Position numbers and translations under genes: made by a program. The notes below the pieces were generated by a model. That model was not told the DNA's origin, did no database searches, and saw only the letters and a program-made list of their open reading frames with translations. Below, in pieces: positions 12,285 to 61,440 of a stretch of 64,000 nucleotides of DNA (its first letter is position 1; every line of letters starts with the position of its first letter). The stretch comes from Rhodocollybia butyracea (lineage: Eukaryota; Basidiomycota; Agaricomycetes; Agaricales; Omphalotaceae): NCBI GenBank assembly GCA_015501585.1, contig JADNRY010000136.1:62001-126000 (forward strand), written 5' to 3'.

Positions 12285-12287
12285 TTG

Positions 12288-12750: not shown

Positions 12751-14420
12751 ACGACCAACTTGAATGAAGCTCAGAAAGCCGACCAAATTACATTTCACTT
12801 TTATACCAAGGTTTTCTACGTTGTCAACGATGCGCGCGCAACTGCGGTGAGCGAGCTAGGAAGCTGGAAAGTGGATAAATGGGTGCGTATATTGTGTTTA
12901 TGTCCTCAAAGAAGTGACTGGCTGATAAGTTTACAGTTTAGCCTGGAGACACCGGATTCAAGGAAGGGCGGGAACCGTACATGGCAATCTTAGCTCCTCG
13001 TGCATTGGCTTCTTTAGAGATATGGATCCTTTTATCCGTTCCAGAAAGCCCAGAAAGCATAACGAGCAACCAAGTTTTGGTCGACTCGTCGACAATTCCG
13101 AGTCAAAGTACAAATATGTGTACTTGAACGATGGGATTTAGACCTAACTCTGAAAGACTATTTTACGAGTTTATCCAATTCCGACAGCTCCAGCGGCAGC
13201 GACCTCTACAAACACACTCGCATTCGCGTACGCGGAAATATTCGTTCGATATCTTTCCCATCCGGTAGTCATCCTACTACTCACCCTATTCTTCCAATCC
13301 GCGCCGCAACCACCACCTCCACGTCCATCCAGAATCTGGCCGGTTGATACACGAATCCCTCAGTAGCGATACCGCGGGCACTGCTTCAGACTCGTATCTA
13401 CCTGCTATCGCTGTAGCGTCGGCCGTCCCCTTCCCTCTTTCTCCATCTCGGGTATGTCCGCATCAACGCTAACAACTTCCCCTGTGGCGATGCGGCGTCC
13501 AGCTCCCAACCCGTTAATCCAGTTAAATCAAACGCCCTTGCTATCACCACTTCGTCCAGTTCTTTCTCGTCCTATGAGCGCCATCACTTAGTACTGAGTA
13601 CTGAGTACTGAATCCTCGCCGTCGCGTGCTCCGGGCGTCTTATCCGGTTTATCTGGCATATCTTAGTGGCGGTATCGAGAGCGTAGGATGGGATAGCGAT
13701 AGGAGTGGGAGGATGGGGCGAGCGAAAGGGAGAGAGAGAGAGAGAGTCGGCGTGAGTATCTCTTTCTTTTCTTTCCCTTTCCCTATCAGAGTTCACATTA
13801 CTAACTCCTTTTGTTCTTCAGATTTTCACTACAGATTCAGATTTACAAGAAAGCCCTATCCATACGCACTGTACGCACCACCACACTTGTACTCGAACCC
13901 TTCGCAATACTCATACCCCTCCGCCGCTTTTCCTCTTTCGCTCCTGCCCTACTCTCGACGCCCTCTTCCAAGTCTACCCGGAGGAGATATCGTTGGTCGT
14001 GCAGAACATCGATACGCGCAAACCGATGAGTCGGCGTTCGGGGATATTGGCTGCGCAGTCGAGAGCGCGCGCGGAAGGAGAGGCGGTAGGAGGGGATAAT
14101 GTTCCGAGGAAAGAGAGGGAAAGAAGGAAAAGAGGGAAGATAGGAGAATGAGAGATGCAACAGAAGCGAGAGAGGATATGGCCAAGACGATCCGTGGCCC
14201 CGCTCCGCGTACGCAGACTCCTGATGCTCTTGGATCTCTTGGACCCCCACTACCGGTAGACGCTCCAGGATTGTAGTCAGAAGCCGTACCACCCCCACCC
14301 TCGCTCCTCCTCTTGCCCCTTCATCTCCTTTTTCTCCAGCACCGCTCTCGCCAAGCACAACCGCACCAGCGTTCGCACAGGGGCGTCTGCGTGGTCCCCC
14401 CCCCCGGTTCTTTGGCGGTG
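12751..14420 (+). pseudogene. ATG13 pseudogene copy 1
   Basis: It aligns by eye with the near-complete ATG13 at 31468. The N-terminal HORMA start is recognisable (QKADQITFHFYTKVFYVVND, ARATAVSELG) and ends at the same splice site, but the initiator ATG has become ACG at 12751. After the first intron the copy has small deletions and frame changes (EGREPYM-like region near 12980, DSSSGSDLYKHTRI near 13190) and loses most of the second half of the HORMA region. The central Ser/Pro tail and the RCSCRTSIRANR-like equivalent of the conserved DIDTRKP segment (about 13990) are present in shifting frames. It ends in a poly-C tract near 14400. No translatable product is likely. Orientation is the same as the X copy that follows. 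Confidence 0.8.
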
Positions 14421-15059
14421 CTATCTATATACCAACGTAAACCAGTTAAACGAGCTGAAAGAGCTGGTCACGGTTACGCGTGGGCATGACTCTGTGGGCA
14501 CGGGCTGTTTGATCAATAGTGGACGAAAGGTGTGCGTAGGCGGGAAGCTCTGAGGTTTTGGGCGTTTTGGTTTTTTCGCGAGTTTCAGGTGGTTCAAGTG
14601 TTTTCGAGTGTTTACCACTACCACCTACCACTACCACATAACGATACACAATTCAGAAAGTAGCTGCGTACCCCAGACTATCTTAGAAATGTATATCCCT
14701 CCGCAGAGTATATAAGTTCTTGAATAGAATAATGATGTCTTGTTGTGGTAGATTTAGAAGAGGTATCGAGAGCAGCAGCGGAATAGAACTCCCGGTTTGG
14801 GCAGAGGAAAGGAGGAATAAGAAGAAAAGGAAGAATCCTGAGCGCTGAGCGCTGAGCTCTGAGTCTTGCCTCTTTCTCAACATCCAGATGCTTGCTTGGT
14901 GTGCGAAGAGATTCTGGCCTGGACAGCGAGTTACTAGACAATGCCAAAGGATTCAGAATCTCAGGTCGGTTTGTGTAAGGATATGTGAACGAGTTATTCT
15001 CTTCACAAAAGATAGCTAGCCGCTAGCCGCTAGTGTAAGGCACGACAGGTTTTTCTCAT
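14421..15059. other. ATG13 3' flank and X 5' flank
   Basis: The first 230 bp match the 3' flank of the other ATG13 copies (the ACCAACGTAAACCAGTT and CACTACCACCTACCACTACC parts). The remainder matches the block that precedes other X genes, including the GAGTCTTGCCTCTT and GAAATTCTGGCCTG-like words near 14860-14920. No gene is supported. Confidence 0.55.
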
Positions 15060-15098
15060 ATGAGCGACTTCAACGAGTTGGCTCCTAATTGTGTTCAG

Positions 15099-15262
15099 AT
15101 GTTAGCTTGCACACTCGTCTTCCAATTCGGACCAGGAGTTTCGGAAAATCGGCAATGGACATTGAAATTTGAAAGAAGTGAAGAAGCAAAAGGATATGGC
15201 GGACCATGGCGGACCGCTTGTAATTCTCACGTGAACAGGTTGAAACGTTTGGGCGCCTAATT
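15099..15262 (+). pseudogene. Decayed extra first exon of X1
   Basis: An ATG at 15099 followed by MLACTLVFQ repeats the start of X exon 1, but the sequence departs after about ten residues. It lies directly upstream of the real exon 1 (15271). The same nested arrangement is found upstream of X6 (36870-36936), and a matching tail lies upstream of X7. It probably reflects a partial tandem duplication of the promoter and exon 1 before the larger unit was copied. Confidence 0.55.
15227..15236. promoter_or_regulatory. E-box CACGTG upstream of X1
   Basis: CTCACGTGAA: nine of ten bases of the CTCACGTGAG palindrome found in front of the other open X genes, 34 bp before the ATG. CACGTG is the classical bHLH site of fungi (Cbf1/Pho4 type). 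Confidence 0.5.
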
Positions 15263-15270
15263 GCTTTCAA

Positions 15271-16401
15271 ATGTTAGCTCGCAAACTCATCTTCCAAACC
15301 TCGGGAATTCGGGCCAGTGCCCTTGGCTTGTCGACAATCTTTTTGGATCATCGTTATGCATCTACTCTTACCAAATTAGAATCCACGCCATCAGAAGAAT
15401 CAGTCTTGGGTTCATCCCCAAAAGTCCCTCGGGTATGTGCCGTATGCTCCAAGCAATAAGATAACTAACTCAGAACCAAAATGTAGTTGGGAAGGGGTAG
15501 GACATTTGCCAAGTCACACAATATCTCAACACTTGACCCTGCAAGGCTTGTTCCATCAGACTTCATTGACTTGAAACAACAATTGCACTTCGCAGTGCGG
15601 TACCGCAACATGTCTATCATGCTTGCTGCATATAAGCGTACAATGAAGCCAAAGACATATGTATACCCCCTGGCCTTTCCAGCTGGGAGTCACGGCTACC
15701 TGTATCTACATCGTCCTCCTGCCGATGTCCATCCATGCGCTGCAACCTTACGGTTCAGAATCTGTGATAAACTCTTCCCGCCTCAAGAAGGATTCTCCAG
15801 TGGCAAAGACTTGTTACTTCCAACAGGTGCTCCTTGGGAAATGGACTTGCTACATCTCTTCACATCAAAGTTGGTCACAAACTTTCGGGAGGCCCTACTC
15901 CTTGACAACTTGGTATCCGAGGAAGTTTTGACCCAGCTTGATCTGCTAGCGGCTCACCAGAGGAGCTCCAGGGCTCGAAATCATCTTCTCTTTTCGTTCC
16001 GACAGCCATTCAGTGTCTCAATGGGTCAACGTTCCACTACATTGTCCGTCGTTGACCTAGAGGCCAATACAATTTCACAGGCCCAAGTCTTTACTACAAT
16101 AGCAAGTGAGTTATTTTTTTTTTCCTTTATTGTTCTCATTATATGTTTCTAACTTGTACTTTCAGAGCGCACGGACAAAACTCTTTCATGCACTATGCGC
16201 TTGGAATACAATCCATCTGCTCGGCGACACCGTATGGTAATCCGAGTTCTGCAAATACCAAAAGAGTTCCACGGCGAAACATTCGTCAACGAGGGCGATA
16301 TCTTACCATTCAAATTAGCGGGAAAGGGGGAATTTAGCTCAATGGCGGATGTCCTACTTCGACAGTCGCCTTTGGTGCCGTCTCACGCAGATCAGTCCTG
16401 A
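15271..16401 (+). CDS. X1: unrecognised three-exon family, 338 aa
   Basis: The model joins 15271-15432, 15487-16105 and 16166-16401, with GTATGT/GTGAGT donors and TAG/CAG acceptors. The spliced frame has 339 codons and no lesion. I recognise no domain. The first 35 residues have several basic residues and no Asp/Glu before D26 (MLARKLIFQTSGIRASALGL), and end in HRYAST, resembling a mitochondrial presequence with an R-x-Y/S-type cleavage site; localisation is inferred. The body is globular, with conserved words ISTLDPARLVPSDFIDLKQQ, HGYLYLHRPP, HPCAATLRFRICD, LLLPTGAPWEMDLLHLF and FREALLLDN. The last exon has TMRLEYNPSARRH and SSMADVLLRQSP. The HPC cysteine and the ICD cysteine are constant in the family. 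It follows the ATG13 copy 1 pseudogene on the same strand. Confidence 0.78.
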
Positions 16402-17528: not shown

Positions 17529-17538
17529 CTCAAGTGAG
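17529..17538. promoter_or_regulatory. Mutated E-box upstream of X2
   Basis: CTCAAGTGAG: the palindrome present before the open copies has lost its central CpG (CACGTG to CAAGTG). X2 is also the most decayed X coding copy. Confidence 0.45.
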
Positions 17539-17568
17539 TTCAGTGAATGAGCGCCTAATCGTATTCAA

Positions 17569-18712: not shown

Positions 18713-19714
18713 TTAAAAGTTTTGAGTTTTGAACCTGTTATCATTATGATAGCCAACGAGTTTATTGAACAGTGGTATTACGAGAAGATTATGTAGGTAT
18801 ATTGTGTTGACATGTAGAGCCATCTGTCGCAAGATGTATGGCGAAGAAGTTGCAATCGCAATTAAAGCGTCCTTTTTTGCCAGTGTTTTACCTGAGGACA
18901 ATGTCAACCAGCAATCTACCAGTGTTCTGACTATGGTCACTAATGTAGATTACGCTTGACTGTTGGCCATTGGGACGTACTACACTATCGTCCATCATAC
19001 ATTTCGATTCGCTTCCGTTTCGCTCAAAACCAATCGGCGATGGTTTTGATTCTGTTCCATGTGCACCAAGTACAGAGGCATGTGGTCCATGGTCGTGCGT
19101 TGTGCACAGCAAGCTAAAAACCATACCTCACCTCAAATTTCGCCCATTCGCCCATTCCCAGCACGTAGCAAGCAACCGGAAACGCGAATACTCCTTTATA
19201 TTCCCCAGGCGTCCAGGACCTTACCTTCTGTTATTTTCATCTTCTTTTGAGAGAGTCTCTCAATTGTCTGAACCTCCATTTTTTCTAAGAGCAAGATCCC
19301 GGCTAAGTAGCTGAACACAACTTGAAGGCTTGAGGATCACGCTCAGGAATTCAGAAAGTTGGTGCTACGCTAAACGAAAACGGCCGTGCTAACAGGCAAG
19401 AAAAGTAATCTGTCAAAGGCCCAAATAACGAATCGAGGGGCCAATAATTAATAATTACTGACGAGTTGTTACTGACGAGTTGTCCATGTATAGCATCCGT
19501 ATTTCAGCGCAACTTACTACTACATCAATCGTTGAGCTAGGGTAAGGGGCAAGAACGTTTCGTACCAACAACCGAAACATCCTACGCAGCCCGCCCGGTA
19601 CATTCCACCCACTTCAACTGGTAAACAAACTACATCATATAACGCGTAACCAGCTCATCTACGTAGTATATATATAGCAACGCATAAGATACACGCGCCG
19701 CCTACACTCGCAAA
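18713..19714. other. X2 3' flank and junction with ATG13 copy 2 3' flank
   Basis: To about 19300 this is the conserved X downstream block. From about 19440 an AATTAATAATTACTGAC stretch leads into the reverse complement of the ATG13 downstream flank (CAGCGCAACTTACTACT at 19505). The same convergent junction is found at 26935, 34900 and 57140. No gene is supported. Confidence 0.55.
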
Positions 19715-22080
19715 GTATTACCTCCCTGAATCGAACCCAAGACGGAAAAAGTGGGCTCGAGGAGGGTGAGAACGGGGGAGAGTAGTGGCGAGCGCAGTAG
19801 CGAGAGCGGTGAAAAGTGGGTAGCTAGACACTTGAATCGACACCCCATGTCCATAACCCCAAACCCAATCCCCCTGCCTTCCCCTGCCTTCCCTGCCTCC
19901 CCCTTCCCCCAAGCAATCCCTCCAGACTAGCCAAAAACACATCGTTCATCTTCTTCAGCCGTGCTTCAACGTCCGACACGGAGGTGAGCATAGGCGAGGA
20001 GTGTGTTGGTGGGGATGACGGATTATGGGTTCAGTTGGATATCGAAGAGCGGAGGCGGAGGCTTCTTCCTCGTCTTGCCGCGTCCTGCGTCTGCTGGCCC
20101 CGACGCCGACCCTGAGGGGATCCTCTTCACTCGGGAAGGAAATGACATTCCTTAGCGGTGAAGACAGCGGGGAGAGCCCTAGAGCAGCACATATATTTGA
20201 ACTCGTGTAGGACAAGCGTTTGGATATGGGTATGGGTATTGGGAATGAGGTTGGGAATGAGGTTGGCGAGGAGGAGCCTGAAAGAGAACCCGAGCTGGAA
20301 GAAAACCGACGAGGACTTCCTAGTACGAACGCCGGTGCAGTTGGGCTTGGCAAAGGTGGGAGCGGAGGAAGCGGCGACGAAGGAGGGTGTAAGACTTCTT
20401 CTTCCGACTGGGAAGCCTCTTGTGTTTCTCTCGGTCCCTCTCGCAAAGGCGGATTCTGGGTAAGCTGAGCGAGACTCCGTATCCTCGTGTCCCTATCTTC
20501 TCTTACTTCTCTCGGTTCCCTATCTTCGTTCTTATCATCGCCCCTTTCTCTCACATCCCCGATATTCCCCATACCGCCTACATCTCCACCCGTACGCGCG
20601 CTCGACTGCACAGCGAATATCGTCGAGCGCCCACTGAGTAGTTTCCGCGTATCGATGTCCTGCGTGAATAGCGATATCTTGTCGTGGTCAATTTGGAAGA
20701 GGGAACCGGAAGAACGACGGGTATGCGTATGGGCATGGATAGGGTTTTCCTAGGGATCGGAATCCGTAGCGGAGACCGTGCTTATCTGAGAGGACGAGTT
20801 AGCGACGTACACTAATAGGAACAAGAAAGAATATAAAAGAAAAAAAATACTCACGCGTCGACTCTCCCTCTCCCTTTCGCGCGCGCCACTCCTCCCATGC
20901 CTATCGCTATCCGTCCTACACTTCCTAACCCACCACTATTCCCTTGACTACTACTCATACTGACCCCTGCGCCTCCAGGCGTCCCCTTAGTAATCCCCTA
21001 GCTCCCTATACTTTGCCACGCAGGCGAGAAGCACCGATGTCCGAAGGACGAGAAATATCGCTTTCGCGGTGGGACGAGGACTACTCCAGCGGTGGTCGTA
21101 GGACACGGAGGACTCATTGTATCCGCACCCGCACTGACATCCGTGTTCGTACTGGTATTCGCACCATATCAGTTTTCATACCCGTTCCCGAATTCACCCC
21201 CATGCCAATACAACTACTTGGCACGGAGCAACTAGTCCCTCCCAACGACCACGGACAAGCTAAATTCGCCAGCCCCGAAAGTGACGAGAGGGAGATAGGA
21301 CTAGGACTGGTACCGCTCGTTTGTGGTAAGCCAGACAAACCGGATAAGCCAGATATGCATTTCGTTGTTGGTGCGGACGTACTCGTACCCGAGATGGAAG
21401 AAGAGAAGGAGGAAGAGGATAGGCCGGGGCAGGTGGGTCGACGTTCCAGTGGTAGCTGGTAGATACGAGTAAGAAGCAGTACCTGCGGTATTGCTACCAA
21501 AGCGATTCGTGTCTTAACCAGGCGGCGAGGCCGGAGAGGGCTTGATTCTGGATGGACGTTGGCGCGTGTATGTCGGACGTGTATGGTGCGGAGGACATAT
21601 ATTATGATTGTTAGGGTGACTAGTGACTACCGGGTCGTGAAGATATCACAAATCTCTCCGCGACGGAATCGGCATCGGAAGGCGTACGCGAATGTGAGAT
21701 CACAGGATATTGTGTGGCGGCGAATGAGAAGGTAACGATACGCCAGTTCTTCCTAAAGAACCACCGGCACTGCTCAACATCAAATCCCGCTCCTGGTTCT
21801 TGTCGGCGTGAACTCGAGTCCGTTCGCGGTGTCCATTGACAAAGCTCTCCATCTCGTCGATTCGGAAATTCGGAGATGTGAGATAGGTAGAGATAAATGT
21901 GAGGAACCTGACAGTGATAGGGTGTTGCATAGGAGGGAAACTGTGAGTGCTGGTTGGAAGCGCGAGACTGCGAAGGCGAGCCATCGTCGTGGAACCGAAA
22001 TATGCGGCTGGTTTCGACGCTGGTAAAACGCGGAGAAGGGAGTAGAGGAGATTGAGCGGAATAGCTTATTTGAAAAGGTT
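19715..22080 (-). pseudogene. ATG13 pseudogene copy 2 (5'-truncated)
   Basis: Reading on the minus strand, similarity to ATG13 begins near 22080, inside the LLYSLLRVLPAW segment of the HORMA region, so about the first 110 residues and the promoter are absent. The next blocks include SLPISHLRISE and SMDTANGLEFTP with frame changes. The Ser/Pro/Thr-rich middle follows (21500-21110, GSLGRTGVSLP, TTKCISGLSGLSGLP), and its frame is interrupted repeatedly. The last part (20611-19955) is open for over 200 residues and keeps RTGGDVGGMGNIGDVRERGD, LAQLTQNPPLREGPRE and SPLRNVISFPSEEDP. Without an N-terminus it cannot make Atg13. It is useful as a reference for the frame in the C-terminal part of the better copy. 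Confidence 0.8.
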
Positions 22081-23135
22081 GGTATTAGTCTTTGTTTTTC
22101 TCGAATAACAGTATTGAAAGATGTACCTTATAATATACATGAAGAAATCTTGGAGCTGTAAATCATGAACTGTATTTCGGAAATACCAGCAGTCCAGTCG
22201 AAGCTTTGTTAAGAATGAGAAATTTTCTGGAACTTATCCGCTTATTGAACATCGTAAGAACGACAGGGGATGTACATGAGCGCTAGAAGCGCCGAGCGAT
22301 ATGTCAACGAAAAGTGCTTTGTGTGATTTCGGGAAATTGACGATTAGCATAACAATAACGACTCCGAGGAGGAAAAGTGGTGCTGTGTAGACGCGCGTGG
22401 CAAGCGCTTACTGTTGTATTGGCCGTTTCTCGGCATTCTATCTTATCTTATCTCGGTCTGTCTAAAGTATTTACAGTATCGCCCACCGCCCGGTCGTATC
22501 GTCTTCGGAACACTCATACTCAGTCTACAATATCTGTACAGTAATCTTGGAGCCTCTTGACTTACTTTGACTTTGTTGTTGACTCCAGTCCTTCTCAATG
22601 GTCCTTCTTTTCTCTTCTGGAACTTGGGGATTTCTCGCCATTGTACATAGCCATTATTATAGGTATAAATACCGTACCTTATAACCTCCAGAACTCTCTC
22701 GTTAATTTTCGCCTGACCGGCCTCAGCGCTAACGATTATACTGTACTATTTCGACCATTTGTTCACGGCCTGTGACCTGTGACAGGCCCTGTTCAGAATG
22801 TCAATTGTTCACAGTTGCTGGGGACCTGTGCCCATGGGGTGAACAGTTCAGATATGACATCATTTCTTGGTCCATTTAGTAGTATAACAGGTTTGTAACA
22901 TGATGAAGAAAAAAGAGTGTGACTCCTGAGTGAGTCTCGGTCTTTGCTCGATCTTTGCTCGATCTTTGCTCGGTCTTGACATCCGCTTGCTTTATCTGCC
23001 AAGAAATTCTGGCCTGCACTGGAGCTAAGTACGACAGTGCAAAAGGAATCAGATAGGTGTGTGTAAGGATAGCCTGACTAGCCCGTCTTGTAAGTAGTAG
23101 TTAAGTAAGTAGTGAAGAAAAGTCAATTGTGTTTT
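22081..23135. other. Spacer with X3 5' flank
   Basis: 22081-22850 has no gene I can support. From about 22900 the sequence matches the block before the other X genes (CTTGCTTTATCTGCC, AAGAAATTCTGGCCTG), including a short triplicate of TCGATCTTTGC near 22945-22975. Confidence 0.45.
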
Positions 23136-23145
23136 CTCACGTGAG
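23136..23145. promoter_or_regulatory. E-box palindrome upstream of X3
   Basis: CTCACGTGAG, a perfect 10-bp palindrome 31 bp before the ATG. GCGCCTAATT, shared with the ATG13 promoter, follows at 23159-23168. Confidence 0.55.
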
Positions 23146-23176
23146 GTTGAACCAATGGGCGCCTAATTGCGTTCAA

Positions 23177-24329
23177 ATGTTAATCCGCAAGCTCATCTTC
23201 CAAACATCGAAAATTCGGCCCAGTAGCCCTGGCCTGACCACGGTCTTTTTAAATCATCGTTACGTATCTACTACTTCCAAACCAAAAGTTACGCCATCCG
23301 AAAAACCAGTCTTGGATCCATACCTCAAAGTCCCCAAAGTATGTTCCGTATATCCCAAGCGATAAGATAACTAGTAACCAAGGACCGAAATGCAGGTCGG
23401 AGGGGGCAGGACATTTTCCAGATCACACAATATCTCAACACTTGACCCCGCAAGGCTTGTTCCAACGGACTTCATTGACTTGAAACAACAATTGTACTTC
23501 GCAGTGCGGTACCGCAACATCTCTGTCATGTTTGCTACATATAAACGTGTTGCTGCTATAGCAAAGCGAACGGAATACGGTTACCCCCTAGCCTTTCCAG
23601 CAGGGACTCATGGTTACTTTTATTTACATCATCCTCCTACCGATGCCCATCCATGCGCTGCAACCTTACGGTTCAGAATTTGTGATAAAATCTTGCCGCC
23701 TCAAAAAGGATTTCCTGGTGGCAAAGACTTGTTACTTCCAACAGGTGCTCCTTGGGAGATGGACTTACTACATCTCCTCACGACTCCGTACGTCACAAAC
23801 TTTCGAGAGGCCCTGCTCCTTGACAATATGGTATTATCCGAGGAAGCTTTGTCTCAGCTGAATGGTCTGTTAGCGGCTCACCGGATACGCGACAGGCTTC
23901 CATCTCGTAATGTATTCTCGTTCCGGCAGCCATTCAGTGTCTCAATGGGTAAACGTTCCACCATGTTGTCCCTTGTTGACCTACAGACAAATACACTTTT
24001 ACCAATCCAAATCTTTACTCAAATAGCAGGTTTTTGAATTTGAATTTTTTATTTTTTCACTATGTTCCTAATTTGTGCTTCCAGAGCGCACAGACAAGAC
24101 TCTTGCATCCACTATGTGCTTGGAATACGATCCATTTACTCCGCTACACATGGTAATCCGAGTTCTCCACATCCCAGAAGAGTTCCGCGGCGAAGCATAT
24201 GTCAACATGGGTGGTACCTTACCGCTCAGAAAGGCGGGGGGAAAACTGACTAGCTCAATGGCGGACGTCCTACTCCGACAATCACCTTCGGTCCCGTCTC
24301 ATGTCAGTCTCGACATCGCACTTGATTAA
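23177..24329 (+). CDS. X3: unrecognised family, 346 aa
   Basis: The model joins 23177-23338, 23396-24029 and 24085-24329; the frame is open for 347 codons. The second donor is GTTTTT in place of the family's GTGAGT, so splicing efficiency is doubtful; without splicing the protein would stop two codons later and lose the last 82 residues. The basic N-terminus with HRYVST is kept (MLIRKLIFQTSK). Family words are conserved: ISTLDPARLVPTDFIDLKQQ, HGYFYLHHPP, HPCAATLRFRICD and LLLPTGAPWEMDLLHLL. It has a one-codon insertion in the NMVLSEEALS segment relative to X1. The last exon carries EEFRGEAYVNMGG and SSMADVLLRQSP. Function unknown; mitochondrial location inferred from the N-terminus only. Confidence 0.72.
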
Positions 24330-25508: not shown

Positions 25509-25518
25509 CTCACGTGAG
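25509..25518. promoter_or_regulatory. E-box palindrome upstream of X4
   Basis: CTCACGTGAG, 32 bp before the X4 ATG. Confidence 0.5.
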
Positions 25519-26711: not shown

Positions 26712-26934
26712 TTAGGAATTTTAAAAACCATACCATTACAATTGGGAGATCCGTAGAATAGTTGATAGTTAGGGTCAGGCATAGCTATCCTGTAGAGGTC
26801 AGAGATGTATCTGGGACGATGACAGCAAGCTGGTTTAGACGTTATTAAGGGAAGAGTATTGTGATGACATGTAGGGCCAGCTATCGCAACTACTTGGATG
26901 TCTGGCAAAGAAGTCGTGATTTCAAATTTGGCCA

Positions 26935-27330
26935 ATAATTAAAAATTAACTAACAAGTATCCGTAAGGATGGCGGTACGTCCATATTTCAGCGCAACTTA
27001 CTACTCCATAAATCGCTGAACGGGGCTAAGGGTTAAAAACATATCGTACCAAGGGTGCTAGTGGGTAATAGGAGGTAGTAGGTGGTAGTGATAATAGTAA
27101 TGGGAATCGCTTTCTTTCCTCGAACACTCGAAACCCAGAACACCCGAAAAACCAAACAACCAAAGTATCCTACGCGGCCCGCCTCTTATCCACTTCAACT
27201 GGTAAACGAATCACACAATATGACGCGTAACCAGCTCGTCCAGCTTGTCTATGTAGACCGGGGAGAGTAGTGGCGAGCGTAGTAGTGAGAACAGTGAAAG
27301 TATAGGGTGTAATCGTATACGGCGGCAGGT
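26935..27330 (-). pseudogene. ATG13 3' flank remnant
   Basis: The sequence after X4 turns into the reverse complement of the ATG13 downstream flank (CAGCGCAACTTACTACT at 26990; ACGCGTAACCAGCTCGTC at 27221). Only the last 400 bp remain; the coding part is replaced by the X5 upstream region near 27300. It marks a fourth convergent X/ATG13 junction. Confidence 0.6.
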
Positions 27331-27408: not shown

Positions 27409-28539
27409 ATGTTAGCTTGCAAACTCATCTTCCAATCACCAAAAATTCGGACCAGTGGCCTTAGCCTGACGACAGCCTTTTTCAACACTCGTTATGTATC
27501 CAATCTTACCCCATCAGAATCTGTGCCATCAGTCTTGGCTCCAGACCCAAAAGTGCCCAGAGTACGTGTTATATTTCATATTTCCTGTTACACGGATAAC
27601 CAAGAACCCAAAATGCAGTGGTCAAATGGCAGTCGGACCTTCTCCAGATCCCACAATATCTCAACACTTAACCCCGAAAAGCTTGTCAAATCGGACTTTA
27701 TTGACTTGAGACAGCAAGCCCATATCGCAGTACGATACCGAAGCATATCTTCTATGCTCTGTCCATATCTACTTCGTCCAACAAAGGCAACAGTGATAGC
27801 TGCCCAACCCTTTCCAGCTGGTACTCACGGTTACCTCTATCTGCATCGTCCTCTCAATGTCCATCCATGCGCTGCAAGATTACGGTTCAGGATCTGCGAT
27901 AATTCCCTGCCGCCTCAAGAAGCATTCTCCAGAGGCAATGACTTGTTGCTTCCGAAAGGTGCTCCTTGGGAGATAAGCCTGCTGCAGCTTCTCACATCTG
28001 CGTCCATCTCAAACTTTCGAGAGAGTTTTCTCCTTGATGGCTTCACATCCGAGGAGACTTTGTCGCAGATGGATGGGCTGCTAGAGGCTCACAAGAAAGG
28101 GACCAGGTTTCACTCTCGTCTCATCTTTTCGTTCGGGCAGCCGTTCAGCGTCTCAATGGGTCAGCGTTCTGCCAAGTTCGGCGTTGTCAACCTGGAGAAC
28201 AGCACAATTTCAACGGTCCAACTCATTACCGCGATAACAGGTGAGTCTTTTTCTTCTTTTGCTTTCACTGTGTTTTCAATCTGGGGGCTTCCAGATGATG
28301 TAAGCAATACTCTTCAATGCACAATGTGCTTGGAATACGATCCATCTACTCGGCGACGCATTGTAATGCGAGTTCTACAAATCCCAGAAGAGTTCCGTGG
28401 CGAAACGTCTCTGAACAAGGACGGTCTTTTACCTTTCAGAAATAGCGGGCGCAGCCCGCCTATGTCACTGGCGGATGTCCTACATCGACAGTCACCTTCG
28501 TTACAACCTCACCCGGATCAGTCTGGATTTTCTATCTGA
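27409..28539 (+). CDS. X5: most diverged open X copy, 339 aa
   Basis: The model joins 27409-27561, 27619-28240 and 28295-28539. Both introns are multiples of three without stops, so the unspliced frame is also open; by comparison with X1, X3 and X7 I prefer the spliced form. The N-terminus is basic with TRYVSN in place of HRYVST. Family words persist with many substitutions: ISTLNPEKLVKSDFIDLRQQ, HGYLYLHRPL, HPCAARLRFRICD, LLLPKGAPWEISLLQLL, SFGQPFSVSMGQRS. Protein divergence with an intact frame and conserved splice sites suggests the copy has been under selection longer than the others. Its downstream flank does not match the block behind the other X genes. Confidence 0.75.
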   Translation: MLACKLIFQSPKIRTSGLSLTTAFFNTRYVSNLTPSESVPSVLAPDPKVPRVRVIFHISCYTDNQEPKMQWSNGSRTFSRSHNISTLNPEKLVKSDFIDLRQQAHIAVRYRSISSMLCPYLLRPTKATVIAAQPFPAGTHGYLYLHRPLNVHPCAARLRFRICDNSLPPQEAFSRGNDLLLPKGAPWEISLLQLLTSASISNFRESFLLDGFTSEETLSQMDGLLEAHKKGTRFHSRLIFSFGQPFSVSMGQRSAKFGVVNLENSTISTVQLITAITGESFSSFAFTVFSIWGLPDDVSNTLQCTMCLEYDPSTRRRIVMRVLQIPEEFRGETSLNKDGLLPFRNSGRSPPMSLADVLHRQSPSLQPHPDQSGFSI

Positions 28540-34400: not shown

Positions 34401-34478
34401 AACCTGTCATGCCGTCATCCCCACCAACACACTCCTCGCCTATGCTCACCTCCGCGGCGGACGTTGAAGCACGGCTGA
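31468..34478 (+). CDS. ATG13: Atg13, autophagy initiation factor, near-complete copy (about 930 aa)
   Basis: Atg13 is the HORMA-domain regulator of the Atg1 kinase complex at the phagophore assembly site. Exons are 31468-31593, 31648-33540 and 33607-33894, plus probably 33993-34478. The HORMA region begins QKADQITFHFYTKLFYVVND, continues with ESKYKYVLLERWVLDLTL, GIPLFRSLYSLLRVLPAWKL and PNFRIDEMESLLSSRFMSMD, and is followed by about 600 Ser/Thr/Pro/Gly-rich residues. The PPRKRYSSSFGHRY word is typical of mushroom Atg13. Exon 3 has EEISLFMQDIDTRKPLSGRS. Between exon 3 and the next segment the frame changes; either a 98-bp intron (GTAAGG at 33895 to CAG at 33992, which keeps phase) or a one-base loss in the G-run near 33903, since copy 2 reads through. 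Near the end SDVEARLKK-like sequence (ADVEARLKKMNDVF, 34462-34503) lies in another frame, so the true C-terminus is unsettled. Confidence 0.8.
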
Positions 34479-35062
34479 AGAAGATGAACGACGTGTTTTT
34501 GGCTAGTTTGGAGGGATTAGGCGGAGGGCGGGGAGGCAGGGAAGGCAGGGGAAGGCAGGGGGATTGGGATTGGGGTTATGACAGAGGGTGTCGATTCGAT
34601 TGTCTACCTACTCACTTTCCACCACTCTCGCCAACACTCCCCACTACGCTCGCCACTACTCTCTCCCGTTCACACCCTGCCCGAGCCCACCCTCCCGTGT
34701 TGGGTAACCCATTTCGAGCGTGTATATCTTATGCGTTGCTATATATATACTACGTAGACGAGCTGGACGAGCTGGTTACACGTCATATGGTGTAGGATGT
34801 TTGATTTTTCAGGTGTTCGAGTGTTCGAGGAAAGGCAGGGATTCCCGTTACCACTAGCACCTTGGTACGATACGTTCTTACGATACGTTCTTACTCCTTA
34901 CCCCAGCTCAATGAGTAGCAAGTTGCGCTGAAATATGGATGTATGGCTATACTTATGGATACTTGTCAGTAATTATTAATTATTGGCCATTGATGGACTA
35001 TTCGTCAAACCTATGGGTGTTATCGTGGTGCGGTTTCTCAAGATTTGTTGGTGTTCAGCTAC
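34479..35062 (+). other. ATG13 tail region in another frame and convergent junction
   Basis: A frame open from about 34388 to 34795 encodes ADVEARLKKMNDVFLASLEG then a Gly/Arg-rich stretch. Similar sequence lies at the same place in copies 2 and 6, so it looks like an ancestral C-terminus. From about 34930 GCGCTGAAATATGGATGTAT marks the junction with the 3' flank of X6. Confidence 0.45.
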
Positions 35063-42044: not shown

Positions 42045-43102
42045 GGGTTGTTTGACTTTTCGGGTGTTCTGGGTGATTCGAGTGTTCAAGGAAAGGAAGG
42101 TATTCTCGTTACTACCACTACCACCTGCTACCACCTTGGTACAATACGTTCTTACTTACCCCGGTGATCCCGCGCATAGGATGAGAAGCACTTGAGGAGG
42201 TCTGATAGCGAATGTTTAATTTATGGGTGTACAGAGTTGAAGGAGAAAAGGATAGGCCGGGGAAGGGGTGTGTCGAGGCCGGAGAGGGCTTGATCCTAGT
42301 GGACGTGGAGGTGGTGGTTGTGGCGCGTGTGATTGGAGGTATAGGGTGGGTAGGATGGGTAGGATTTTGGTGATTGCCGGGTGGTAAAGATATGTCGAGT
42401 CTCTCCGCGATGGAATCGACATCGGAAGGCGTACGCGAATGTGAGTGTGTTTGTAGAGGTCGAAGTATATCTCTCGGCGGCGAATTAGGAGGTAACGATA
42501 CGCCTGTTCTTCCCAAAGAACCACGACCTGCACTGCTCAACGTCAACGTCAACATCGAATCCCGTTGTTGGTGTAAACTTGTGTCCCTTCGCCGTATCCA
42601 TCGACACGAATCACGAGCTCAACATTCAACAAGTTTACGGTATACCGTACCTGGAGAGCGTCGAGAACGAGACACTGCCGCTGGAGCTGCCGGAATCAGA
42701 TGAACTTGTAAAAAAGTTTTTCACATATTCGTACTTTGACTCGATTGGAATTCTGGACGAGTCGGGGGTTATGTAGACCAGAACTTGGTTGTTTGTTATG
42801 CTTTTTGGGATAGACAAAAGGACTTGTATCTCTCGAGGAGCCTACAGCTAATACACGGTGAGGTGAGATTGTCCTGTACAGTTCGTGCGATTCCTTGAAT
42901 CCGTTGTCTCCAGGTTAGACTGTTAACTTATCAGTCAGTTACTTCTTCGACGAGATATGCTCAATACACGCACCCATTTATCCACTTTCCCGCTTCCTAG
43001 CTCGCTCGCCGCAGTTGCCAGTGCATCGTTGACAACGTAGAACAGCAAGTTGGTATAAAGGTGAAAGGTAATTTGGTCGGCTTTCTGAGCTTCGTTGGTC
43101 AT
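42045..43102 (-). pseudogene. ATG13 pseudogene copy 4 (internal deletion)
   Basis: Minus strand. The ATG at 43102 and the HORMA start (MTNEAQKADQITFHLYT) are intact up to the first donor, with one extra codon compared with the main copy. The second part reads PDSSRIPIESKYEYV and FFTSSSDSGSSSGSVS, then joins GSLGRTGVSLPPNSPPRDIL and ALHTPSRTPSDVDS-like words. The middle of the HORMA region (LLERWVLDL through LLRVLPAW) is missing, and the coding sequence stops near 42180, after which the ATG13 3' flank follows directly (42045-42165). The whole C-terminal half is lost. The GACCAA palindrome upstream is kept (43143-43159). Confidence 0.75.
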
Positions 43103-43264
43103 AGCTTCGCGTAAGTGTCCAGCTGTGCATTAGCACCAAAAGGACCAACGTTTTTGGTCTACTGTCCTGCAATCAGACCACTAGAAGGTTGCGTATTGGC
43201 GCTCGAATTAGGCGCGGAATTTTTCTCCGCCGGGCCGATGGCGGCCTTAACCTGGCGTACTCCT

Positions 43265-43610
43265 TTTTCGGGCATGGTACGCGATAATCCCGTTCAGCTT
43301 TAAATAAAGCTTAAAGCTTAAATTGTGGGCGGCGCTAGCTTAGGCCAAGTCCGTTCTCTTCAAATCTGGACTCAATCGTGTTAGTGTGAAATTCTTTCGT
43401 TTTCTACACTCAAACTGGACCCGAAAGAACTGCTTTTTGCCGAGCGTTGAGCATCACCTGCAAGCTCATGTTAACCATCTTCCAGAATCTGCACTCACAC
43501 ACCCAGCTATTCTATTTGACGCTGTATTCCTCCAAGTTCCAGGCCTCTATATTATTCCTCCACGATCTCAACCTGATTTCCGCCTGATGCAATTTTTTAT
43601 TGCCGTGTAA
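43265..43610 (+). pseudogene. ATG13 upstream block and head-to-head remnant (copy c)
   Basis: AAGCTTAAATTGTGGGCGGC and neighbouring bases (to about 43345) are the reverse complement of the ATG13 upstream block. Beyond, a plus-strand frame reads LTHPAILFDAVFLQVPGLYI and stops at 43610, corresponding to copies a and b. Confidence 0.4.
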
Positions 43611-50171: not shown

Positions 50172-50288
50172 TCAATCTCGTTCTTTTCGACATCCCATCG
50201 CACTTCTCTCCTCGGCATACATGTAAGTGGCTTACCCAGACTCCCTTGAGGCTCTGCTGATCACCATGTCCTCCCAACAGTGTGCATA

Positions 50289-55127: not shown

Positions 55128-55203
55128 CCACGGTTTCCGTCTATTTTGAGCGTCAATACGTACACTTTCTTTGCAACACTGGTGGTCTGACTGCAGGACA
55201 GTA

Positions 55204-55220
55204 GACCAAACACGTTGGTC
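55204..55220. promoter_or_regulatory. GACCAA-N5-TTGGTC palindrome upstream of ATG13 copy 5
   Basis: GACCAA-ACACG-TTGGTC, perfect half-sites, conserved although the coding region behind it is dead. Confidence 0.5.
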
Positions 55221-55254
55221 AGCATCTTTTCGATTCTAATGGACAGCTGAAAAC

Positions 55255-57140
55255 TTACGCGGAAATAAAGCTCAGAAAGCCAACCAAATTACAAATCACA
55301 TCACACTTTTATAGCAAGCTTTTCTACGTTGTCAACGATGCCAGGGATACTGTGCGGCGAGCGAGCTCAAAAGTGGGAAAGTGGATAATGGGTGCGTATA
55401 CTGTAAAATTTCCATTGAAGAAGTGACTAACTGATAAGTTTACAGTTCAACCTGGACCGGATTCGGGCTTGTGGACAAAGGAAGTGAGAGAACCGTTTGT
55501 TTTTTCTAGAAAGCACGAACAACCAAGTCCTGGTCTCCATAGCCCCCCGACTCGCCGAGAATTCCTATCGAGTCAAAGTACAAATATGTTCTACTCGAAC
55601 GATGGGTTTAATAGATCTAACTAGCTAGATCTTTATCTGATTCTGACAGCTCCAGCGGCAGCGTCTCGCTTTCGACGCTCTACATTAACCTCTACAAACA
55701 CAGTCACATTTGCGTACGCCTTCTGGTATCGATTCCGTCGCGGAAAGATTTGTCATATCTTCCGGAATTAGTACTCACCCCAACGATCCTCTTACCATGC
55801 CACAACCACCCCCTCCAAATCCATCCAGAATCAAGCCCTCTCCCGCATAGCCGCCCGACTCAGACACGAATAGCTCGGTAATGCCCTACTCGGACACTAA
55901 TCCCTCGGTAGTCACATCGCAGGCCGCATGTACAGCTTTGGACTCGTATCTACGAATAATCACCGGAACTTCACCGGTCCTGCCTCCCTCTCTTTGCTGT
56001 TGGGGTTGGAGAATCTACCTAGGCCGTCGACGTTGGGAGGGACAAGTTGCTCTGTTTCTAGTAGTCTTATCAGCGTGGGTACGAATACGGGGACGGGTAT
56101 GGTACGGGTACTGATACCGGTATGAACACCAATACGAACTCGAATGTGGGGGTGGGGGTGGGCACAGGGAGTCCTGCAGATCCTACAACCACCGCTGGAG
56201 TAGTCCCCGTCCCACCGCGGAAACGATACTTTGTCCTTTGGACACCAGTATTCATCGCCCACGAGGGGGAGTATACGGAGTACGCCGCTGTTAGGGGCAA
56301 TACAAGGGGGACACCTGGAGGGGCAGCTCAGTATGGGTAGTAGTCAAGGCAGTAGTGGAAATAGCGGCAGGGTAGGAAGTGTAGGCCGGGATAGCGATAT
56401 GAGTGGGTGGATGGAGCGAGAGAGAGAGGGACAAGGAAAGGGAGGGCAGGCGTATGAGAGCAGATATGACCATTTCTTTTCTTCCCTTTCTAGTCATCCC
56501 TTTGTTCTTATCCTGTCCTTCCCCTTAGACAAGCACGATCTTCGCCACAGATTCCGATCTCCAGGAAAGCCCCATCCATGCCCATACGCATCAATACGCA
56601 TACGCATACCCGCCGCTCTTCCGCTCCCACTCCCGATGTCATCTTCCAACTTGACCACAGCGAGATATCGTTGTTCATGCAGGACATCGACACCCGGAAA
56701 CCGCTTAATGGGCGCTCAAGGATATTCGCTGCGCAGTCGATGGCGCGTCCGGGTGGAGATGTTGAAGATGTATGCAGTATATCGAGGATGTGAGAGATAT
56801 TAAAAACGAAGATAGCAAACCAAGAGAAGCGAGAGAATATGGGGACAAGATGATCTGGTTCTCGCTCCGTTCACCCAGAGTTCGCCTTTGCGAGAGGGAT
56901 TGAGAGAAACACAAGAGGCTTACATTCGGAAGGAGAAGTCTTTCACCCTCCTTCGTTACCACCACCACTTTTGCCAAGTCCAACTGCACCGGCGTTTGCA
57001 CTAGGAAGTCCTCGTCGTTTTTCTTCTGGTTTGGGTTCAACCTCCTTACCGATATCCAATCAGATACCCAAACGCTCATCGTACACGGGCTCAAATATCA
57101 TAGGTGCTGCTCTGGGGCTCTCCCCGCCATCGTCGCCGCT
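55255..57140 (+). pseudogene. ATG13 pseudogene copy 5
   Basis: The start ATG is lost (the region reads CGCGGAAATAAAGCTCAG). HORMA words are present in pieces (QITSHFYSKLFYVVND-like near 55285, PRIPIESKYKYV-like near 55556), but deletions remove the rest up to the Ser-rich tail. From 55930 the SLLLGLENLPRPSTLGGTSC and TTTAGVVPVPPRKRYF segments and the later EISLFMQDIDTRKPLNGRS (about 56660-56713) are open in local frames. It ends near SYTGSNIIGAALGLSPPSSP (about 57072-57130), joined to the convergent X7 flank. Many frame changes; not functional. Confidence 0.8.
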
Positions 57141-57846
57141 ACGCTGAAATACGGATGTATGGCTAGATATAGATACCTGTTAGTAATTATTATTTATTGG
57201 CTCGCAATCGATCTGAGTGTTATCGTTCTCAAGACTTGTTGGTGTTCAGCTATTTAGCCAGGATCTTACTCTTAGGGAAATGGAAGTTCAGACTTTGAGG
57301 ATAATATGAAAAAAGCATAAGGTAAGGTCCCAGATGTCCTGAGAATCGAATCCGTTTCCGGTTGTTTGGTATGTTTTTGAGACGCCAAATGGCGAAAGTT
57401 GAGGTATGATGTTTTTTTGCAACGCATGACCATGATAATACTTAGTGTGCATGGAACAATTAAACCCATGGACTTGGTCTGAGCGAAACTGACTTGAGGA
57501 AGGGATCAATTGTATGATGGATAACGATGTGGCACGTCCCAGCAGCCAACAGTCAAGTGTAATCCCACCTTGGTGACGATAGTCAAAAGACTGGAAGACG
57601 ATGCTCATGCAACACACCAGCGAAAAGTACACTGTCGCAACTTCTTTGCCAGACATGCAACAGTTGCGATAGATGGCTCTACATGTCAACATAGATTCTT
57701 CCCATAATACCACTGTTTGACAAACCCGCTGGCATCATCATCCCTCAAGGCTATCTCCGACCTCTAAAAGATAGCTATGCCTCACAATAACTATCGACTC
57801 TTCTATGGATCTCCTGATTGGAACGATACAGTTTTAAAACTCCTAA
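57141..57846 (-). repeat. X7 3' flank (conserved block)
   Basis: It matches the X6 downstream block (35080-35600) nearly base for base over long stretches, for example CACCAGCGAAAAGTACACTG at 57614 and 35406, making the 34.9-36.8 kb and 57.1-59.0 kb units recent duplicates. Confidence 0.7.
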
Positions 57847-58995
57847 TCAAGTGGAATGTTGAGACTGGTCTGCATGAGACGGCACCGAAGGTGACTGTCG
57901 AATTAGGACATCCGCCATTGAGCTAGGTGCGCTTTTCCCCTCTATTTTTAATGGTAAGATATCGCCCTCGTTGACAAATGTTTCGCCATGAAACTCTTTT
58001 GGTATTTGTAGAACTCGGACTACGATGCGTCGCCGAGCAGATGGATTGTATTCCAAGCACATAGTGCATGAAAGAGTCTTGTCCTTGCGCTCTGAAAGTC
58101 CAAGTTAGAAACATATAGCGAGAACAATGAAGAGGAAAAAAAATAACTCACTTGCTATTGTAGTAACGACTTGGGCCAGTGAAATCGTGCTTGCGTGTAG
58201 GTCAACAATGGACAATGCGGTGGAACGTTGACCCATTGAGACACTGAATGGCTGTCGGAATGAAAAGAGAAGAGGAGATCGAACCCAGGAGCCTCTCTGG
58301 TGACCCGCTAGCAGCCCATCAAGCTGGGACAAAGCTTCCTCGGATACCATGTTGTCAAGGAGTAGGGCCTCTCGAAAGTTTGTGACAAACGCAGACGTGA
58401 AGAGATGTAGCAAGTTCATTTCCCAAGGAGCACCTTTTGGAAGTAACAAGTCTTTGCCACTGGAGAATCCTTCTTGTGGCGGCAAGAGTTTATCGCAGAT
58501 TCTGAACCGTAAGGTTGCAGCGCATGGATGGGCATCGGCAGGAGGATGATGTAGATAAAAGTAACCGTGGCTTCCAGCTGGAAAGGTTAGGACGTGTCCA
58601 TAGTTCTTTTCCTTTACTATAATGCGTTTATATGCACCAGATATAACACATATGTTGCGGTACCGCACTGCGAAGTGGAATTGTTGTTTCAAGTCAATGA
58701 AGTCCGTTGGAACAAGCCTTGCGGGGTCAAGGGTTGAAATATTGTGCGATCTGGCAAATGTCCTGCCCCTTCCGACCTGCATTTCGGTCCTTGGTCACTA
58801 GTTATCTTATCACTTGGGATATACGCCACGTACTTTGGGGACTTTAAGGTATGGATCCAAGACTGGTTTTTTGGACAGCGTAAATTTTGATTTGAAAGGA
58901 GTAGATACATAGCGATGATTCAAAAAGAGCGTTGTCAGGCCAAGGCTACTGGTCCGAATTTTCGATGTTTGTAAGATGAGCTTGCAGGCTAACAT
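57847..58995 (-). CDS. X7: unrecognised family, 343 aa
   Basis: Minus-strand model: 58834-58995, 58152-58776 and 57847-58091; donors GTACGT and GTGAGT, acceptors CAG; 344 codons are open. The start is basic with HRYVST (MLACKLILQTSK). Words conserved with X1 and X6: NISTLDPARLVPTDFIDLKQ, HGYFYLHHPP, HPCAATLRFRICD, LLLPKGAPWEMNLLHLF, FREALLLDNMVSEE, SFRQPFSVSMGQRS. The last exon has TMCLEYNPSARRR, EFHGETFVNEGD and SSMADVLIRQSP. Near-identity with X6 in flanks and code suggests a recent copy. It lies tail-to-tail with ATG13 copy 5 and head-to-tail with copy 6. Confidence 0.78.
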
Positions 58996-59029
58996 TTGAA
59001 CGCGATTAGGCGCCCATACGTTCAACTTG

Positions 59030-59039
59030 CTCACGTGAG
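59030..59039. promoter_or_regulatory. E-box palindrome upstream of X7
   Basis: CTCACGTGAG, 34 bp before the X7 ATG. Sequence beyond (to about 59125) matches the tail of the decayed extra exon region seen before X1 and X6. Confidence 0.55.
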
Positions 59040-59189
59040 AAACACAAGCGGTCCGTCATATGCGACCAACTTTGTTTCTTCACCTCTTTCAATCTCCATT
59101 GCCGCTTCTGACAAGCCTAACTGCATCGGGGATCCTCGATCCTCTCCTCAGGGCGAGGATGTCGATGAGGGTTGGCCAATAACAAAAAC

Positions 59190-61440
59190 TAATCTCAATC
59201 TTAAAGAAGCTCCAGCGGCAATGTCTCCCCAGCACGGAGTACGGACCCTAGCTCCGCCGCGATATCCCCATCTCGGTCTGCCAGCCATCACCCTATCAGC
59301 TCGAGATTCATGTTGATGGACACCGCCAAGCAACTCCGAACTTGGTAAAGAGCTAAAAGCGATAAGCAGGGTCTTTTGGGAAGAAATATGTATCGGCCTT
59401 GTTTGCTGCTGTGAGATATTTTACGATCGGACTCGCATTTGCATTCCGTTTCCATCACTATTCACCCCAACGATCCTCAAACTTGAACCCTATCCTAGTC
59501 CCAGAGTCCCAGTCTTCCAATCGCACGCGCCGCATCACCTCCACGTCCACCACAATACCCGGCCTCACCGCCCGCCGACTGAGGCACGAATCCCTCGGTT
59601 TATATTGCAGGCACTGCCTCAGACTCGTTTCTACCAGCTATCGTTGAAACGTCGTCCCACCCCTTCCCAATTCCCCCCTATCTTTTTCTCTCTTGTATTT
59701 CCGGAACAGGAACCGGCACATCCGCCCCAACAACCACAACCAATGTATCGTTCCGCTCCCAGCACCATTCACCCAATACTCTCGTTATCTGCACCACCTC
59801 GAGCTCTTCTCTTCCTATGAGCAGGATCACTAGATCTCCACCCTCGCGTGTACCGTGTTTAGTATAGGTTGTCTGGCTTGCCGCTGGTATTGGTACCGAG
59901 ACTGGGACTGTGACAGCGAATACTGGCACTGGTCCTATTTCCCTTTCTTCACTTTCGGAGCTAGTCAATCTACTTGGGCCGGCGTCTTTGGGAGGGACTA
60001 GTAGAGTAGTCTTATCGGCGCGGATACGAATACAAATACGGGTAATAACTACGAGTACCGGTACCAATATGAACACGAATATGGATGCATCCTGCAGGTC
60101 CTACAGCCACCGCTGAAGCAGTCCCGTCCCACCACAAAACTCCTTGTCCTTTGGATTCCTCGCCTGTAAGGGAGTATAGGGAGCACGTCGGTAGGAGTCG
60201 AGGTGATAGTGTAACGAATAGCGGAGTAGGAAGTGTAGGCTGGGATAACGATGAGAGTGGGAGGAGTGGAGGGAGGGAGAGGGAGGGTAGGCGGGTTAGA
60301 AGTCTTTTTTTCGACCATCCCTTCATGCTTATCCTGCCCTTCTCCTTAGACAAGGACAATCTTTGCCACGCATTTCGATCTCCAAGAAAGCCTCCCGTTA
60401 CTCTTCCGCTCCCGCTCCTGATACCCTCTTCCAAATTGACCACGACAAAATAACGAGATATCACTGTTCAGGTAGGACATTGATACACGGAAACCACTGG
60501 GCGGATGGTTGGGGATATTCACTGCGCAGTCGAGAGCGCATACGGGTGGAGATGTCGAAGATGTAAGCGGTATGGGGAATAAGAGATGATAAGAACAAAG
60601 ATAGGCTAGAGAAGCGAGAGAAGACAGGGACAAGACGATCCGGGTCTCGCTCAGCTCACCCAGGATCCTCCTTTGCGAGAGGGATCGAGAGAAACGCGAG
60701 ATGCTTCGCCGTTGGAAGCAGAAGTCTTACACCCTTCTTTGCGGCCGCTTTCACCTCTTTCTCCAGCCCCGCGTAGCAAGTCTCTGCCGTTTTTCTTCCG
60801 GCTTGGGTTCACCGCCAGGCTCCTTATCACCAACTTTGTTACCAATACCCGAGCTGATGCTCAAACGCTCATCCTACATGGGCTCGAATATAGGTGCGGC
60901 CCTGGGGCTCTCCCTGCCGTTGTCGCCGCTAAGGAATGTTATCTCGTTGTCGAGTGAGGGGAAGCAGCACCGGCACTGGCAATACGAGGAAGAAGCTTCT
61001 GCTCCTCAATATCCCACTTAACCCGTCAACCCGTCATCTCTGCTGACACACTCCTCGCCAATGCTCACCTCCATGTCGGACGTTGAAACGTGGGTGAAGG
61101 AGGTGAATGATGTGTTTCAGGCTAGTTTGGAGGGTCTGGGCAGGGGACGGGGAGGACAGGGTGAGAGCAGGGAAGGGAAGGGCAAGGGCGGCAGGGGATG
61201 GGATTGGGATTGGGATTATGACAGCGGGTGTTACTCGATTTGAGGGTCTAGCTACCACCACTCTCCCTAGTCTCTTCCTGTTCCCACCCTTCTCAAGTCC
61301 CACGCGACCAAGCTTGGTGTTACGCTTGATTTGTGAGGGCTAACACTTCACTTTGCGGGTGTGGGCGGGCGTATATCTTATGCGGTGCTATACATATACT
61401 ACGTAGACGAGCCAGACGAGTTAGTGTTTACCAGTAAGTG
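59190..61440 (+). pseudogene. ATG13 pseudogene copy 6 (5'-truncated)
   Basis: Similarity starts abruptly near 59190 inside the Ser-rich linker after the HORMA core (CTCCAGCGGCAATGTCTCC corresponds to the SSSGSVS segment), next to the X7 upstream flank. The tail region is present with many indels: SLSSLSELVNLLGPASLGGT (about 59942), the DIDTRKP equivalent (GRTLIHGNHWADGW, shifted, about 60470), AQLTQDPPLREGSRET-like (about 60650), SPLRNVISLSSEG (about 60930) and EEEASAPQYPT followed by TAA. The SDVETWVKEVNDVFQASLEG segment (61075-61134) lies in another frame, as in the main copy. No start and many lesions: a pseudogene. Confidence 0.8.

What the first reader, a model, noticed from the sequence alone, without database searches (positions are those of the whole stretch)
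12751..61440. A two-gene cassette, ATG13 plus an unknown family 'X', has been duplicated many times
One near-complete and five decayed ATG13 copies alternate with seven X copies and truncated pieces of both. In four places (about 19, 27, 35 and 57 kb) the two are convergent with the same junction sequence (AATTATTAATTA-like stretch next to GCGCTGAAATAYGGATGTAT). Introns and flanks are copied too, so these are genomic duplications. ATG13 is usually single-copy, and such an amplification is unusual. X stays open in five of seven copies while ATG13 decays in five of six, as if X were the selected partner and ATG13 the passenger.
Basis: partly seen in the sequence, partly recalled or inferred. Interest (0 to 1): 0.85.

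Follow-up and report, generated by a model that had tools for sequence, protein, structure and literature searches.

The report
One autophagy gene spawning dead copies
In the mushroom Rhodocollybia butyracea a stretch holding the autophagy gene ATG13 and an unnamed neighbour gene has been copied many times; one ATG13 stays under selection and its other copies have decayed, while most copies of the neighbour in this stretch remain intact.

Summary
The repeat structure is real. The window is part of a 166-kb contig of the mushroom Rhodocollybia butyracea. It holds six ATG13 copies and seven copies of X, a three-exon gene of unknown function; the same ATG13 3' flank lies beside X at four places. 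A separately assembled haplotype repeats 16.5 kb of it at 97%, so it is no artefact. Pfam finds one ATG13 over cut-off in the 95.6-Mb assembly, at 31.5 kb. Its private substitutions avoid codon positions 1 and 2 (ratio to position 3: 0.23); 11 other copies are near neutral (0.84), with 223 of 269 coding indels breaking frame. X is open in five of seven copies, weakly constrained (0.56), and 18 of 21 exon indels keep frame. So one functional ATG13 seeded dead copies, while X copies were mostly kept. 'Passenger' fits the extra ATG13 copies only; the retained one is the most constrained. The pair is not the only unit: X matches lie on 16 contigs without ATG13, and ATG13 matches on six (three allelic pairs) without X. 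It looks like ordinary local duplication with birth-and-death of an orphan family. What X does is unknown.

The parts
31468..34510 (+). ATG13 copy A3, the retained gene: HORMA domain and conserved C-terminal motifs; intron 31594-31647; two apparent one-base shifts in the C-terminal third
   Evidence: PF10033 E=1.5e-33; only place over cut-off in the genome; constrained by codon position
12616..14221 (+). ATG13 copy A1, decayed, HORMA cut short; most lesions also in the second haplotype
   Evidence: 17 frame-breaking indels shared with C138; 6 and 3 private
19439..22197 (-). ATG13 copy A2, decayed
   Evidence: 23 frame-breaking indels shared with C138; 5 and 7 private
26929..27161 (-). ATG13 3'-flank fragment beside X4
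   Evidence: 70% over 233 columns to 34795-34989; junction motif at 26975
42046..43386 (-). ATG13 copy A4, truncated
55138..57141 (+). ATG13 copy A5, decayed, with internal and terminal parts missing
59559..61412 (+). ATG13 copy A6, decayed, start missing; 3' flank at 61591 without an X
15271..16401 (+). X1, intact, 338 aa
   Evidence: exact splice of P0004
17569..18700 (+). X2, reading frame broken by seven one-base indels not seen in the other haplotype (approximate ends)
23177..24329 (+). X3, intact, 346 aa
   Evidence: exact splice of P0005
25551..26700 (+). X4, in-frame TAG after 250 aa (approximate ends)
27409..28539 (+). X5, intact, 339 aa, most divergent copy of the array
   Evidence: exact splice of P0008
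35616..36761 (-). X6, open, 344 aa, convergent with A3; the annotated protein P0001 starts later, inside exon 2
57847..58995 (-). X7, open, 343 aa, convergent with A5; the annotated protein P0002 has a different first part

Best explanation
The array is a local segmental-duplication cluster. Shown: an interval carrying ATG13 and the convergent neighbour X has been copied several times, in both orientations and with truncated ends, over about 110 kb of one contig. One ATG13 (A3) has stayed under strong purifying selection and the 11 other copies examined drift near neutrally. X copies mostly keep their frames and are weakly constrained. Inferred: one functional ATG13 lineage shed copies at different times. 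Most were dead from the start because they were truncated, while X copies, which are small whole genes with their own flanks, often arrived complete and were kept by birth-and-death evolution of a family expanded in this species. Inferred: the copies arose by ordinary unequal exchange or repair-linked duplication seeded by existing copies.
For: A separate haplotype contig is collinear over 16.5 kb at 97.2%. Pfam ATG13 is over cut-off at one place only. Private substitutions at codon positions 1, 2 and 3 are 7/430, 6/404 and 23/346 in A3 (p=1.6e-5), pooled 142/1734, 156/1630 and 140/1333 in 11 other ATG13 copies (p=0.085), and 59/1274, 54/1439 and 74/987 in 7 X copies (p=8.5e-5). Coding indels keep frame in 18 of 21 cases in X and 46 of 269 in ATG13 copies (p=1.5e-10). 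Frame-breaking lesions are shared between haplotypes, 17 in A1 and 23 in A2. In the ATG13 copy tree the shortest branch is on A3 (0.026 against 0.054-0.18). A3 falls among single ATG13 genes of Lentinula and Collybiopsis in a protein tree.
Against: A3 itself shows two apparent one-base shifts in its C-terminal third, and none of the 120 listed database hits (of 167) bears this species' name. If the shifts are real and fixed, the assembly would hold no intact ATG13; constraint continues past them (ratio 0.24 on 19 changes by a majority rule; only 7 changes, 3 at positions 1+2 and 4 at position 3, by the strict rule), so they look recent or are consensus errors. The X-versus-pseudogene difference in codon-position ratio is modest (p=0.02). 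Some dead copies have ratios well below 1 (C826 0.52, p=0.059; C-terminal parts 0.54-1.02), which may mean a short functional life. C513 has a 41-b scrap resembling X 3' flank (80%), so its 'X-free' copies may once have had an X. The duplication mechanism itself was not observed.
Confidence: 0.8

Rival explanations
1. A mobile element, for example a Helitron or an LTR element, captured or carried the ATG13-X interval and spread it.
For: A PIF1-like helicase ORF lies at window 303-2912 and a copia-type element with 518-b repeats at 99.2% lies at C401:39649-46417. ATG13 matches occur on six contigs besides C401 and C138.
Against: Copies have different ends and mixed orientations, the carried stretch differs from copy to copy, and most copies are clustered on one contig. 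I noticed no shared terminal repeat, but made no systematic search for one.
Confidence: 0.1
2. The duplications are kept because X and ATG13 work together, so the pair is selected as a unit.
For: The convergent pair recurs at four places.
Against: Eleven of 12 ATG13 copies examined are near neutral and broken. X matches lie on 16 contigs without an ATG13 match. No X relative was listed from Lentinula, Gymnopus or Collybiopsis, which have ATG13 (searches limited to capped candidates).
Confidence: 0.05
3. The decayed ATG13 copies have a role of their own, for example as antisense or small-RNA sources regulating A3.
For: Many persist although dS to A3 is 0.21-0.52; several are convergent with X, so read-through could make antisense RNA (inference).
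Against: Their substitutions and indels look near neutral. No RNA data were available.
Confidence: 0.04
4. Assembly artefact: one unit placed many times.
For: Paralogue-rich regions mis-assemble, and one-base indels that differ between the two haplotype contigs suggest local consensus errors.
Against: Copies differ by about 16-35%, far beyond read error. The second haplotype contig has the same order over 16.5 kb.
Confidence: 0.01

Closest known systems
Birth-and-death evolution of a lineage-specific gene family by local duplication (recalled concept)
   Same: Tandem and inverted copies of X, some broken, most kept, at varied ages.
   Different: The units also carry an unrelated, otherwise single gene, whose spare copies die.
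Passenger pseudogenes in segmental duplications (recalled concept)
   Same: A neighbouring gene is copied in part and decays near neutrally while one copy stays constrained.
   Different: The source is a core autophagy gene and 11 decayed copies were examined.
ATG13 paralogues of Collybiopsis luxurians (P0015, P0023, P0035)
   Same: A species of a related genus also has more than one ATG13-like protein.
   Different: In the protein tree its two extra paralogues pair with each other (100%) and group with Collybiopsis (83%), so they look independent of this array, and they are annotated as full proteins.

Membership tests
ATG13 (PF10033), copy A3 | N-terminal HORMA-type ATG13 domain over the curated cut-off | tested here: met
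   116.9 bits against a cut-off of 25; 140.7 bits with exon 1
ATG13 (PF10033), copy A3 | Conserved C-terminal stretches of agaric ATG13 present in one reading frame | tested here: inconclusive
   Stretches present to residue 917 of 939 of the Lentinula protein, but in three frames with two apparent one-base shifts; still constrained
ATG13, other window copies A1, A2, A4, A5, A6 | Intact full-length reading frame | tested here: not met
   Each lacks part of the gene and has 8-54 frame-breaking indels in aligned coding sequence
Known Pfam or PDB family for X | Match over cut-off to a curated family or a solved relative by sequence | tested here: not met
   No family over cut-off: only one of 21 members has even a weak match to each of two families; 0 PDB sequences at E<=1
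Known fold for X | Clear structural match to a solved fold | tested here: inconclusive
Mitochondrially imported protein (X) | Basic, acid-poor N-terminal presequence that is cleaved on import | tested here: inconclusive
   First 35 residues hold 4-6 K/R and 0-1 D/E in the 8 members given; residues 1-51 low-confidence in the model; import not testable here

The most novel reading that the evidence does not exclude
X is an orphan, probably mitochondrion-targeted family whose amplification is favoured in Rhodocollybia (for organelle conflict or self-promotion), and its duplication keeps copying an essential autophagy gene beside it, which must shed the extra copies.
Probability: 0.1. Interest if true: 0.6.

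Novelty: new member of a known kind. Interest (0 to 1): 0.38.

Why it matters
It is a clear example of a core gene that is repeatedly duplicated yet ends with one constrained copy, beside a family that is allowed to grow. The shared flanks and the second haplotype make it a natural test of why some genes resist extra copies. It also flags an uncharacterised agaric protein family, expanded in this species, with a likely mitochondrial presequence and no recognised fold.

Tried and rejected
Pairwise dN/dS was tried first and set aside as a selection test: the broken ATG13 copies give 0.21-0.38 against A3, lower than X among themselves (0.41-0.69). I read this as a long constrained history on the A3 side. 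I replaced it by changes private to each copy, by codon position, and by indel phase. These gave the opposite ranking for the spare ATG13 copies.

The idea that X2 is a real pseudogene was weakened: its seven one-base indels in the window and the nine frame-breaking indels of its allele on C138 are not shared. I read most of them as consensus errors; this is not proved. X4's stop codon may be real. C138 also has frame-breaking indels in X3b, X4b and X5b.

Gene models: of 16 annotated X-family proteins, 3 spliced exactly onto DNA in a first script and 12 in a second with looser seeding; P0007 (X4), P0010, P0012 and P0141 did not. P0001 (X6) starts inside exon 2 and P0002 (X7) needs two tiny extra exons, so for X6 and X7 I used the exon borders of X1.

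Fold search for X gave nothing usable. Low Z matches to Mu transposase core, Hsp70 and a MATH domain are not taken as relatives. Literature: two searches for ATG13 with duplication and basidiomycete terms gave no paper; one with Agaricomycetes gave three that by title and abstract start look unrelated. One search listed five papers naming the species; of the genome paper PMC8480192 I saw passages only; it names PacBio and Illumina for its set of genomes, and the passages do not say which was used for this species. A search on duplication and birth-and-death gave two papers, seen as listing only.
Full report
Setting. The window is bases 62001-126000 of contig C401 (166,419 b) in a genome of 95.6 Mb in 1,381 contigs. 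Annotated proteins from a contig of that length carry the name Rhodocollybia butyracea, so I take the organism to be that mushroom; strain AH 40177 is given in PMC8480192 (passages).

The observation. Self-BLAST gives 71 off-diagonal matches of 100 columns or more, all but eight between copies of two families. tblastn with three agaric ATG13 proteins places ATG13 pieces at 12.8-13.2 (A1), 19.9-22.2 (A2, minus), 31.5-34.5 (A3), 42.4-43.1 (A4, minus), 55.3-57.1 (A5) and 60.4-61.1 kb (A6). X is a three-exon gene; annotated proteins P0004, P0005 and P0008 splice exactly onto X1, X3 and X5. With X1's exon borders, X1, X3, X5, X6 and X7 are open for 338-346 aa, against 103 aa for X2 and 250 aa for X4; the annotated models of X6 and X7 differ in their first part. 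It is the ATG13 3' flank: similarity continues for about 200 b on C513 and C552, where no X gene was matched, though a 41-b scrap there resembles X 3' flank.

It is not an artefact. Contig C138 (16,747 b) matches window 12054-28393 collinearly at 97.2%, and its first 402 bases match C401:49979-50381, so the two contigs differ there by a 23.7-kb stretch. Over 16,187 aligned bases there are 177 substitutions and 62 one-base indels. The paralogues differ by about 16-35%.

Copies elsewhere. ATG13 matches lie on 8 contigs, of which C513/C552, C826/C437 and C485/C470 are near-identical pairs, presumably alleles. The C485/C470 match is one 179-column stretch and may not be a copy. X matches lie on 18 contigs, two of them (C938, C80) weak and short, and C775/C472 probably alleles. 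Only C401 and its haplotype C138 are in both lists, which are lower bounds. Pfam's ATG13 model passes its cut-off at one place, A3.

Selection. For each copy I counted bases that differ from the other copies where those all agree (at least two others for ATG13, three for X; alleles count among the others for ATG13), by codon position. For ATG13 this covers A3 bases 31468-33536. A3: 7/430, 6/404, 23/346, a ratio of positions 1+2 to 3 of 0.23. Eleven other ATG13 copies (A1, A2, A4, A5, A6, A8, A9, A10, C513a, C513b, C826; the alleles A1b and A2b left out of the pool): 142/1734, 156/1630, 140/1333, ratio 0.84, none of the 11 significant alone (lowest p 0.059, C826). Seven X copies (X2 and X4 left out; X8 and the C459 copy included): 59/1274, 54/1439, 74/987, ratio 0.56. 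X2 and X4 alone give 18/387 against 11/141 and 9/382 against 9/140. X differs from the ATG13 copies at p=0.02 and from A3 at p=0.02. With a looser majority rule A3 is 0.18 in the N-terminal and 0.24 in the C-terminal part; the other copies are 0.37-1.26 and 0.54-1.02. Indel phase is clearer: 18 of 21 exon indels in seven X copies against X6 (X4 included) keep frame, against 46 of 269 in the 11 ATG13 copies. X2 was left out of that count; it has seven one-base indels and two in-frame ones. In noncoding X sequence 4 of 17 are multiples of three. Of the frame-breaking indels of A1 and A2, 17 and 23 are shared with the other haplotype, so those are real; 6 and 5 are private to C401 and 3 and 7 to C138.

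History. In a DNA tree of the copies A3 has the shortest branch (0.026) and the others 0.054-0.18; A1, A4 and A8 group at 96% and the remaining non-allelic splits have 33-85%. X1 groups with X8 (99%), as A1 lies with A8, and C401:34.3-37.8 kb repeats 12.7-16.6 kb block by block, so that block probably moved as a unit. X1-X2 and X3-X4 also align as one 3.6-kb block at 79%. In a protein tree A3 sits with Lentinula and Collybiopsis (its exact place has 44% support).

A3's weak point. Its C-terminal motifs lie in three frames, needing two one-base shifts relative to the other copies. Since one-base indels unshared between haplotype contigs are common here and constraint continues beyond them, I think they are consensus errors or very recent; I cannot decide.

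What X is. A profile search lists 26 proteins: 16 named R. butyracea, 4 metagenome proteins and 6 distant ones, of which five are named, from Coprinopsis cinerea (two), Hypsizygus, Auriscalpium and Tricholomella (7,997 candidates scored). No Pfam family passes its cut-off and no PDB sequence matches. The model is ordered from about residue 56 to 333 and has no clear solved match. The N-terminus is basic and acid-poor in the 8 members given, typical of mitochondrial presequences (established knowledge; not tested).

Conclusion. One constrained ATG13 has been copied repeatedly with its neighbour X. Spare ATG13 copies die; X copies are often kept. The mechanism of copying is inferred to be local duplication. 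I found no ATG13 amplification paper in the held library with the searches.

Noticed in passing
L030:1649-8417 (C401:39649-46417): Copia-type LTR retrotransposon with 518-b direct repeats at 99.2% and gag/integrase and reverse-transcriptase ORFs, near the outlying X8 copy.
   Followed up: partly
window 303-2912: 869-codon ORF with a PIF1-like helicase domain, possibly a Helitron remnant (Helitron label is recalled).
   Followed up: no
window 37412-38769 and 40306-41625: A second local duplicate pair (74% identical, ORFs on the minus strand) between X6 and A4, without a Pfam family over cut-off.
   Followed up: no
window 50250-52223: 657-codon ORF without Pfam match at E<=0.1.
   Followed up: no
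window 44604-44968: Tandem repeat of 36 bp, about 10 copies.
   Followed up: no
C401:50382-74053 against C138:399: The two haplotype contigs differ by a 23.7-kb stretch; C401:50128-50306 at its edge is an inverted match of window 12442-12620.
   Followed up: partly
P0015, P0023, P0035: Collybiopsis luxurians has three ATG13-like proteins; two form a pair on a long branch grouping with Collybiopsis.
   Followed up: partly
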